NCBI GenBank assembly: GCA_015061745.1
Contig: SUWB01000001.1
Location: 124,001 to 188,000 of the forward strand
Direction: 5' to 3'
DNA length: 64,000 bases
DNA from: Lentisphaerota bacterium
Lineage (GTDB): Bacteria > Verrucomicrobiota > Lentisphaeria > Victivallales > Victivallaceae
Of this stretch, positions 28,724 to 30,872 are shown one piece after another. The notes beneath the pieces are model-generated. The model was not told the origin of the DNA. It saw only the letters and a program-made list of their open reading frames with translations, and did no database searches. The translations under genes and the position numbers were made by a program. The first letter of the stretch is position 1, and every line of letters starts with the position of its first letter.

Positions 28724-28743
28724 TCGTGCTTTTAAGCAAAAAT

Positions 28744-28780
28744 GCACTGTCCGGCAAAAAACGGACAGTGCGTTTTTTAT
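28744..28780. terminator. Bidirectional terminator between rsmA and the restriction gene
   Basis: Ten-bp stem GCACTGTCCG (28744-28753) with CGGACAGTGC (28762-28771), loop GCAAAAAA, T tract right and A tract left. It ends rsmA transcripts and, on the other strand, the restriction-modification operon. Confidence 0.9.
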
Positions 28781-28849: not shown

Positions 28850-29536
28850 TTAAGATTTATTTTCCTCACCGTACAGTTCGGAAAGAATATCCTCTGCTGT
28901 GCGAGTTGAAGCTTCAATACACAGTTTTTTTATTGTACGCTTTCGATATTCGACAGGATCATACTGATAACAGCCAACACACCCGATTTTTTCATCATAA
29001 TGCTCATCTCCCTCGTAAAATGCATAGGGATTTCCGGCAATATTCTTAGCATTCCAACGCAAGTTTGTTTCCTTGCATCTCTTGCAAATTTGCCGCTTTG
29101 CATCGTTGGCAGCCTTGCACAGCGGCTGAAAATCCGCCGAACGCTGCTCGGCAGGATTTGAAACCCGCGGATCATTTTTCCTGCCGTCTTTGTGATCGAC
29201 TTCGATTTGAGTATTGACACTGGATCCCTGCACGCCAAGCATAACGCAGTTGCGTTCTCTTATATCCCTAGCGATATCCGGCCTGATTGTCTGAGAAAAT
29301 CCATTTTGCTCATTAAATCCATTCAAGCGGATTGCTATAATTCCTTGCCCCTTTCGTTGTCGTTGAACCTCAATTACATATTGTTTTTCCAATGCACTGC
29401 CCTTACGCCCCCAACTGAAACCGTTTCCGAGCTTCAACGCCGCATATTCTCCGCTAAACTCTGAAACATCGACCCAACGGCTGATTCCTTGGCTGTCAGG
29501 CTTTGCAAGTTCAATAAAAAGTTCTTTCTTTGACAT
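28850..29536 (-). CDS. HNH (beta-beta-alpha-Me) type II restriction endonuclease, NlaIII/IceA-like
   Basis: A 228-residue protein. The HNH core shows VDHKDGRKND (Asp114-His115, Asn121) and QPLCKAANDAKRQ (Asn144). It is followed by two zinc-type pairs, CKRC (151/154) and CVGC (186/189). N-terminal LAKPDSQGISRWV and LKLGNGFSW together with the length recall NlaIII and H. pylori IceA1 (PF05315), which cleave CATG. This is from memory and not a database result. The start is ATG 29536: GGAGA lies 7 bp upstream, while an upstream ATG at 29566 would overlap the methyltransferase. The gene begins 2 bp after the methyltransferase stop, so the two are cotranscribed with the methyltransferase first. Nuclease call likely; CATG specificity inferred. 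Confidence 0.75.
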   Translation of the reverse strand: MSKKELFIELAKPDSQGISRWVDVSEFSGEYAALKLGNGFSWGRKGSALEKQYVIEVQRQRKGQGIIAIRLNGFNEQNGFSQTIRPDIARDIRERNCVMLGVQGSSVNTQIEVDHKDGRKNDPRVSNPAEQRSADFQPLCKAANDAKRQICKRCKETNLRWNAKNIAGNPYAFYEGDEHYDEKIGCVGCYQYDPVEYRKRTIKKLCIEASTRTAEDILSELYGEENKS

Positions 29537-29538
29537 AA

Positions 29539-30810
29539 TTATTTCTCCAATTCTTCTGCAGAACAACGAATCGCCAAACCGATCGCTTTTCCCAAGTATG
29601 GCGGAACAGCATTACCGATTTGCACCAACTGCTTATTTTTCTTACCCATAAAAATAAAATCATCAGGGAAGGACTGTAATCTTGCCATCTCCCGTGCAGT
29701 GAGTACACGCGGCAAACGGGGATGGATATTCACTCCCCCATGATTTTCTTTTATCGTACAAGACGGTGCATTCCATGGGCACTTTTTCCATGCGTCTGAA
29801 TACCCCTTATACAAACTTTCCCCCTCTTTCAATTGCTGCATCCGTTCGACCATATCCGGACGATGTTTGGTGGGCTGGTGATTGAATCCTTCATCCTCAG
29901 GATGTGTCATAAGATCAGCAATTGCCTCCCCGGTTGTAATATACGCTTCAGGCAAAAGGATCGGCTGAGGATGATAATTCTTTTTTCCGATGCGGTTACC
30001 GATAAATATGACCCTTTCCCGGGTCTGCGGGGTATAGTAATCTGCCGCACAAAGAGTTGTAACGTTGATGGAATAACCGATTTTTTTGAAATCCGCTATA
30101 ATCTTTTGCTCAACAGCTCCATTGAGCATACTGCGAAGACCTTTGACATTTTCACATAAAACAAAGTCCGGCTGCAGATTTTGTACTATCTCAATCAATT
30201 CCAGATACAATGAGTTACGGGGATCATCAACAATGCGGTTCCCTGCCATACTGAATCCCTGACAGGGAAATCCTCCTGCAACGACATTCAAATTTCTGCC
30301 GTTCAATTGAGCTTGAACTGTATCATAAAACTTTTGCTTATTTTCTGCAAGTTTTATGTCTCCGTTAATAAACGGATGCTCAAAATTTCTTTCATATGTC
30401 ATTCCGGCTTCATCAAACCAATCCAATCCGCAGATACCGGATAAACCGGCCATTTCCAATCCTTTGCTCAACCCTCCGGCTCCACAAAACAAATCCACAT
30501 AGGTCAACGAGGATTTTCCGGGATTTTCCCAATATTTACTGATATCCACCCAATTGACATCATCAACTTTTCGTACCTGAGAGCGTTTACTTTTTGAGGG
30601 CAGTATCGGCTCTCCGAAAAGATCATATTCAATATCTTCAAGTTCAACATCCAAAGAAAAATTTTCCAATGCCTTTCGGGAAATAGAATAACTGGAACCA
30701 TTTTTCACTGCAGCAAGCACGCCACTGGCGACAAATCGGCGCACAGCTTTTTGACTCAAATCAAGCTGTTCAGCCACTTCTGCAATGGAGTAAAATTCAT
30801 TCTGTTCCAT
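29539..30810 (-). CDS. DNA (cytosine-5)-methyltransferase with N-terminal HTH domain
   Basis: A 423-residue C5 methyltransferase with the motifs in order: motif I VDLFCGAGGLSKG (105-117), catalytic GFPCQGFS (Cys183), ENVKG (220-224), PQTRERVIF (261-269), a short target-recognition region (about 275-365), and LTAREMARLQSFP and QIGNAVPP (370-404). Residues 1-55 (SIAEVAEQLDLSQKAVRRFVASG) form a MerR/excisionase-like helix-turn-helix, a possible autoregulator. It protects DNA against the nuclease encoded next. Oddity: three of the four CATG sites seen in the whole window lie in its recognition-region codons (Ala340-Trp, Pro345-Trp, His357-Gly), unlike host-type genes. This suggests recent acquisition. 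M.NlaIII is an N6-adenine enzyme, so this pairing differs from it. Confidence 0.95.
   Translation of the reverse strand: MEQNEFYSIAEVAEQLDLSQKAVRRFVASGVLAAVKNGSSYSISRKALENFSLDVELEDIEYDLFGEPILPSKSKRSQVRKVDDVNWVDISKYWENPGKSSLTYVDLFCGAGGLSKGLEMAGLSGICGLDWFDEAGMTYERNFEHPFINGDIKLAENKQKFYDTVQAQLNGRNLNVVAGGFPCQGFSMAGNRIVDDPRNSLYLELIEIVQNLQPDFVLCENVKGLRSMLNGAVEQKIIADFKKIGYSINVTTLCAADYYTPQTRERVIFIGNRIGKKNYHPQPILLPEAYITTGEAIADLMTHPEDEGFNHQPTKHRPDMVERMQQLKEGESLYKGYSDAWKKCPWNAPSCTIKENHGGVNIHPRLPRVLTAREMARLQSFPDDFIFMGKKNKQLVQIGNAVPPYLGKAIGLAIRCSAEELEK
29739..29792. other. Cluster of three CATG sites in a window otherwise almost free of them
   Basis: CATG at 29739-29742, 29774-29777 and 29789-29792, all inside the methyltransferase gene and about 200-260 bp upstream of the nuclease start on the minus strand. 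The only other copy seen is at 49218-49221 in gap. Confidence 0.9.
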
Positions 30811-30843: not shown

Positions 30844-30872
30844 AATATATCATTGGCAACCTATCTTTTCAA
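30844..30872 (-). promoter_or_regulatory. Promoter of the restriction-modification operon
   Basis: On the minus strand TTGAAA (30872-30867), 17-bp spacer, TATATT (30849-30844); the methyltransferase starts about 34 bp downstream. It has the same form as host promoters. Confidence 0.75.

What the first reader, a model, noticed from the sequence alone, without database searches (positions are those of the whole stretch)
28850..30810. NlaIII/IceA-like HNH nuclease paired with a 5-cytosine methyltransferase
The nuclease shows an HNH core, two zinc CxxC pairs and an N-terminus that recalls NlaIII and IceA, known CATG cutters. The characterised partner of NlaIII is an adenine-N6 methyltransferase; here the partner is a C5 enzyme with an N-terminal HTH. 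In a genome stripped of CATG this points to a CATG system protected by 5mC, a combination I do not know to be described. Family resemblance is from memory; specificity is inferred.
Basis: partly seen in the sequence, partly recalled or inferred. Interest (0 to 1): 0.88.

Follow-up and report, generated by a model that had tools for sequence, protein, structure and literature searches.

The report
CATG restriction-modification system with cytosine methylase
Two neighbouring genes very probably form a restriction-modification system that cuts foreign DNA at CATG, as the laboratory enzyme NlaIII does, but marks the cell's own CATG sites on cytosine rather than on adenine; the host genome has lost almost every CATG.

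Summary
The 228-aa protein is a full-length PF05315 (ICEA/NlaIII family) HNH nuclease (E 2e-99), 2 bp downstream of a 423-aa C5-cytosine methyltransferase with an N-terminal HTH. CATG is nearly gone: 4 sites against about 296 expected in the window; o/e 0.008 over ~740 kb of the genome once four CATG-rich pieces are set aside. Same-genus relatives without a full PF05315 gene show 0.2-1.06. The genome has no D12 adenine methyltransferase (the class beside NlaIII-type nucleases) and one PF00145 enzyme. The pairing recurs in seven Bacteroidota genomes and, with a divergent PF05315 nuclease, in a phage contig. The same C5 family partners UpaP162-family CATG cutters in mycoplasmas; published work shows the C5-annotated partner of UpaP162 (UPV229) blocks NlaIII. 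A CATG system protected by 5mC is therefore well supported. Neither 5mC nor cleavage has been measured, and the deamination signature is only suggestive. C5-type methyltransferase plus CATG cutter is not unprecedented (UPV229/UpaP162, reported as probable m6A). NlaIII-family plus C5 I did not find described; REBASE was not available. A new variant of a known kind.

The parts
28850..29536 (-). PF05315 (ICEA/NlaIII-family) HNH restriction endonuclease, 228 aa, predicted CATG cutter
   Evidence: Pfam E 2.2e-99; only PF05315 gene in the genome; invariant HNH and CxxC residues in 31 homologues
29539..30810 (-). C5-cytosine DNA methyltransferase, 423 aa, predicted to methylate CATG on cytosine; N-terminal HTH (residues 5-50), target-recognition region about residues 275-365
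   Evidence: Pfam/NCBIfam; only PF00145 gene in the genome; 42-52% identical to partners of UpaP162-family CATG enzymes, with a near-identical target-recognition segment in the closer one
30660..30798 (-). HTH_17/excisionase-type N-terminal domain of the methyltransferase, possible autoregulator
   Evidence: Pfam HTH_17 at residues 5-50; function inferred only; absent in the L008 homologue
30844..30872 (-). Promoter-like site (TTGAAA-17-TATATT, extended TG) upstream of the methyltransferase
   Evidence: Consensus scan only; number of such sites not above chance for the region
28738..28777 (.). Strong bidirectional terminator-like hairpin downstream of the nuclease gene
   Evidence: Stem of 16 pairs with T tracts on both strands
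29739..29792 (.). Cluster of three of the four CATG sites left in the window, inside the methyltransferase gene (residues 340, 345, 357)

Best explanation
A two-gene Type II restriction-modification operon for CATG. The downstream gene makes an NlaIII-family HNH nuclease that cuts unmodified CATG. The upstream gene makes a C5 methyltransferase that puts 5-methylcytosine on the C of CATG on both strands and so blocks the nuclease; its HTH domain may regulate the operon. Long exposure to CATG restriction, perhaps with deamination of 5mC to T, has stripped resident DNA of CATG. Shown here: both families, their operon, recurrent pairing, absence of a D12 methyltransferase, and host-specific CATG loss. 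Inferred: cleavage, the methylated base and the regulation.
For: (1) Nuclease is PF05315 and 51-64% identical to 30 homologues; 28 of 40 related loci lie beside a DPPY methyltransferase, and three sampled are PF02086 D12, the pairing expected of NlaIII/HpyI. (2) The same C5 enzyme (69-75% identity) lies beside PF05315 in seven Bacteroidota genomes, and a 71% identical one beside a divergent 39% identical PF05315 in phage contig L181. (3) The closest C5 enzymes in annotated records (52%, 42%) are operon partners of UpaP162-family enzymes, which are not PF05315; CATG is the most depleted 4-bp palindrome in both hosts (0.31, 0.53). UPV229, partner of UpaP162, makes DNA resistant to NlaIII (PMC6191088). 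(4) CATG o/e 0.008 in resident DNA against 0.72 pooled in relatives without a full PF05315 gene, in all three codon phases: CAT before G 2.6% against 50%; NCA before TGN 1.5% against 14%; C at 4-fold sites before ATG 0.6% against 39%. (5) No D12 gene; the one N6_N4 enzyme is conserved (61-73% identity) in relatives with near-normal CATG. (6) TATG is raised (1.72 against 1.14), and 4-fold sites before ATG went to T rather than A/G (odds ratio 1.55 against 0.81 in relatives).
Against: Six of the seven other C5-partnered hosts are not clearly CATG-depleted (0.70-0.88); recent transfer is the likely reason but was not tested. The T bias is not unique to C5 hosts: two Helicobacter hosts with D12 partners show 1.17 and 1.61. 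The Ureaplasma authors concluded that UPV229 is probably an m6A enzyme. The methyltransferase gene still holds three CATG sites, which suggests it came after much of the purge. The genome is a 91.6% complete assembly, so another methyltransferase could be missing, and two N6_Mtase-type genes were not examined. No NlaIII-family structure was found to compare with.
Confidence: 0.87

Rival explanations
1. The C5 enzyme modifies a different motif, and CATG is protected by an unseen adenine methyltransferase; the two genes are neighbours by chance or belong to different systems.
For: RGCGCY is also almost gone from this genome (o/e 0.02), and a C5 or N4 enzyme would be needed to protect it; the assembly is 91.6% complete.
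Against: RGCGCY is similarly depleted in relatives G008, G014, G016 and G020, which keep CATG at 0.60-0.75; G008, G016 and G020 have no detectable homologue of this C5 enzyme. RGTGCY is not raised (1.27 against 1.33), while TATG is. The C5 family recurs beside PF05315 and UpaP162-family nucleases. No D12 gene was found.
Confidence: 0.07
2. The enzyme of C5 family methylates adenine (or N4-cytosine) in CATG, as the Ureaplasma authors proposed for UPV229.
For: SMRT sequencing of the Ureaplasma strain called m6A and m4C but no m5C, and SphI and NlaIII were both blocked (PMC6191088).
Against: The C5 motifs with the PCQ nucleophile and ENV are invariant; PF00145 enzymes are C5-specific by established chemistry; SMRT kinetics detect 5mC poorly (general knowledge), so the absence of calls is weak evidence; the TATG excess favours cytosine methylation.
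Confidence: 0.04
3. CATG loss reflects an older, now replaced CATG system, and the present pair is a recent arrival with little part in it. (Compatible with the best explanation of what the pair does.)
For: Three of about 25 CATG sites outside the CATG-rich pieces sit in the methyltransferase gene (expected about 0.04 by length); the module genes have the second and third lowest GC3 of the genes examined in the window.
Against: Only this system fits in the genome now; T bias at lost sites fits a C5 system; it does not change what the present genes do.
Confidence: 0.3

Closest known systems
NlaIII (Neisseria) and HpyI/IceA1 (Helicobacter) R-M systems
   Same: Nuclease family PF05315; CATG; two-gene Type II system
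   Different: Their methyltransferase is an adenine-N6 enzyme (M.HpyI: C-m6A-TG, PMC10423294); here it is a C5 enzyme with HTH and no D12 gene is present
Ureaplasma UPV229/UpaP162 and mycoplasma homologues
   Same: Methyltransferase annotated as C5 next to a CATG nuclease; mycoplasma partners 42-52% identical to this one, the closer with nearly the same target-recognition segment
   Different: Nuclease is UpaP162 family (NF045956, blunt CA^TG), not PF05315; mark reported as probable m6A
C5 methyltransferases with N-terminal HTH that repress their own gene (M.SsoII, M.EcoRII, M.MspI; from general knowledge)
   Same: HTH fused to the N-terminus of a C5 methyltransferase
   Different: Probably a different HTH type (here HTH_17/excisionase) and a different target; autoregulation not tested here

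Membership tests
PF05315 ICEA/NlaIII-family nuclease | Full-length match above the Pfam cut-off | tested here: met
   331.8 bits against cut-off 24, residues 2-211
PF05315 ICEA/NlaIII-family nuclease | HNH catalytic core and paired CxxC | tested here: met
   H115, N121, N144 and C151/154/186/189 invariant in 31 sequences
PF05315 ICEA/NlaIII-family nuclease | Cleavage of CATG | not testable with these tools
   Indirect: host-specific CATG loss
NlaIII/HpyI R-M system | D12 adenine-N6 methyltransferase partner | tested here: not met
   Partner is PF00145; no PF02086 in the genome
C5-cytosine methyltransferase (PF00145) | Conserved C5 motifs including the PCQ nucleophile | tested here: met
   Pfam E 2e-65; motifs invariant in homologues
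C5-cytosine methyltransferase (PF00145) | 5mC at CATG in the host | not testable with these tools
   Only indirect TATG excess and T bias
UPV229/UpaP162 CATG system | UpaP162-family nuclease (NF045956) | tested here: not met
   No NF045956 match for the window nuclease
UPV229/UpaP162 CATG system | C5-type methyltransferase of the same subfamily | tested here: inconclusive
   42-52% identity to mycoplasma partners of UpaP162-family enzymes; UPV229 itself not held

The most novel reading that the evidence does not exclude
A recurrent lineage of CATG restriction-modification systems in which an NlaIII-family nuclease is protected by cytosine-5 methylation, built on a mobile C5 methyltransferase that has swapped nuclease partners (two PF05315 subfamilies and the unrelated UpaP162 family) while keeping CATG specificity.
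Probability: 0.78. Interest if true: 0.5.

Novelty: new variant of a known kind. Interest (0 to 1): 0.45.

Why it matters
It indicates that one recognition sequence can be held constant while both the nuclease family and the chemistry of the protecting mark are exchanged, which bears on how restriction-modification modules evolve and on predicting methylomes from sequence. If confirmed, the C5 enzyme would be a 5mC CATG methylase for making DNA resistant to NlaIII-type enzymes, and the Ureaplasma m6A assignment would deserve rechecking.

Tried and rejected
Solved-structure searches by sequence and by fold gave nothing for the nuclease; its model has pTM 0.55, and the methyltransferase model is poor (pLDDT 51), so neither carries the argument. 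CTAG depletion was set aside as genus-wide. RGCGCY depletion was considered as the C5 enzyme's target and rejected. The conserved N6_N4 methyltransferase (L144) was rejected as a CATG enzyme because relatives with near-normal CATG carry it. An empty-site comparison failed: no synteny around the cation transporter in relatives. The deamination test was first read as strong, then downgraded because two D12 hosts show similar T bias. No paper describing NlaIII-family plus C5 was found, but REBASE could not be consulted.

Full report
Observation. The nuclease is 28850-29536 on the minus strand, 228 aa from its ATG; the methyltransferase is 29539-30810, 423 aa, directly upstream with 2 bp between them. 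A strong bidirectional terminator-like hairpin follows the nuclease at 28738-28777. The nuclease matches PF05315 over nearly its whole length (E 2.2e-99), the methyltransferase PF00145 plus an N-terminal HTH_17 domain. CATG is the most depleted tetranucleotide in the window.

Whole genome. In 816 kb sampled, CATG o/e is 0.028, and without four 20-kb pieces rich in CATG it is 0.008, 25 sites. Nineteen same-genus genomes sampled, all without a full PF05315 gene, show 0.2 to 1.06. So the loss belongs to this genome, not to the genus. CTAG is almost absent throughout the genus and is unrelated. The loss is also strong in the codon phases where a C-to-T change is always non-synonymous, which points to selection against the site, as restriction would give, and not to mutation alone.

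Which methyltransferase protects CATG? The genome has one PF00145 enzyme (this one), no D12 enzyme, one N6_N4 enzyme and two N6_Mtase-type genes. The N6_N4 enzyme is conserved at 61-73% identity in same-genus genomes with near-normal CATG, so it is not the CATG enzyme. The two N6_Mtase-type genes were not examined further.

Relatives. Of 40 PF05315 loci in public genomes, 28 have a DPPY methyltransferase nearby and seven the C5 enzyme; the three DPPY enzymes sampled are PF02086. In those seven Bacteroidota loci the order is nuclease then methyltransferase; in the window it is the reverse. The nuclease tree groups seven C5-partnered rows (95/90); the window's row is a long branch whose place is unsure, and a single C5 clade is not rejected. 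In phage contigs the same C5 family occurs without a recognised PF05315 neighbour (L182-L186), or beside a divergent PF05315 nuclease on the opposite strand (L181).

The decisive link. A tblastn search of the plasmid-collection records found the closest annotated C5 relatives in Mesomycoplasma hyorhinis (52% by alignment) and Mycoplasmopsis cynos (42%), each directly upstream of a UpaP162-family type II restriction enzyme. UpaP162 is the Ureaplasma enzyme shown to cut CATG bluntly; its partner UPV229, annotated as a C5 methyltransferase, protects DNA against both UpaP162 and NlaIII (PMC6191088). The segment YSDAWKKCPWNxPSCTIKENHGGVNIHP is nearly the same in the window and M. hyorhinis enzymes. 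UpaP162-family proteins do not match PF05315. One methyltransferase family thus serves two unrelated CATG nuclease families. That UPV229 belongs to this subfamily is inferred from its partner; its sequence was not held.

Chemistry. The C5 motifs are intact. If the C of CATG is methylated, deamination should yield TATG. TATG is raised to 1.72 against 1.14 in relatives. At fourfold sites before ATG, lost C went to T rather than A/G (odds ratio 1.55, 1.38-1.73) against 0.81 in relatives and 0.66 in pooled D12 hosts. Two Helicobacter D12 hosts also show 1.17 and 1.61, so this is suggestive, not proof.

What does not fit neatly. Six of the seven other C5 hosts keep CATG at 0.70-0.88. Near-identical copies in different genomes (L016, L017, L020) suggest recent transfer. 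The methyltransferase gene itself keeps three CATG sites, at columns where Bacteroidales homologues also have them, and both module genes have low GC3; the module may have arrived after much of the purge, perhaps replacing an earlier CATG system.

Verdict. A Type II CATG system with a C5 partner, confidence 0.87. The kind is known; the NlaIII-family plus C5 combination is a variant I did not find described, with the caveat that REBASE could not be searched.

Noticed in passing
window-wide and genome: RGCGCY (AGCGCT, GGCGCC) is almost absent (o/e 0.02), also in relatives G008, G014, G016, G020, independent of CATG.
   Followed up: partly
window 29739-29792: Three of the four CATG sites in the window sit within 54 bp of the methyltransferase gene, at invariant residues.
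   Followed up: partly
G000:C3:1-13000 (L124), G000:C2:5980-14128 (L065), G000:C30:6801-17703 (L080): Islands with many CATG sites in an otherwise purged genome, probably recent acquisitions; L124 carries a radical SAM protein, UvrD-type helicase and aminotransferase.
   Followed up: partly
L186:4226-4987: Phage contig: an unclassified 253-aa protein with a possible PD-(D/E)xK-like motif (by eye) directly upstream of a C5 methyltransferase of this family; possibly another kind of CATG nuclease.
   Followed up: no
L043 (G014:C36): Same-genus relative with a 309-aa protein weakly like the PF05315 C-terminus convergent with a different C5 methyltransferase.
   Followed up: no
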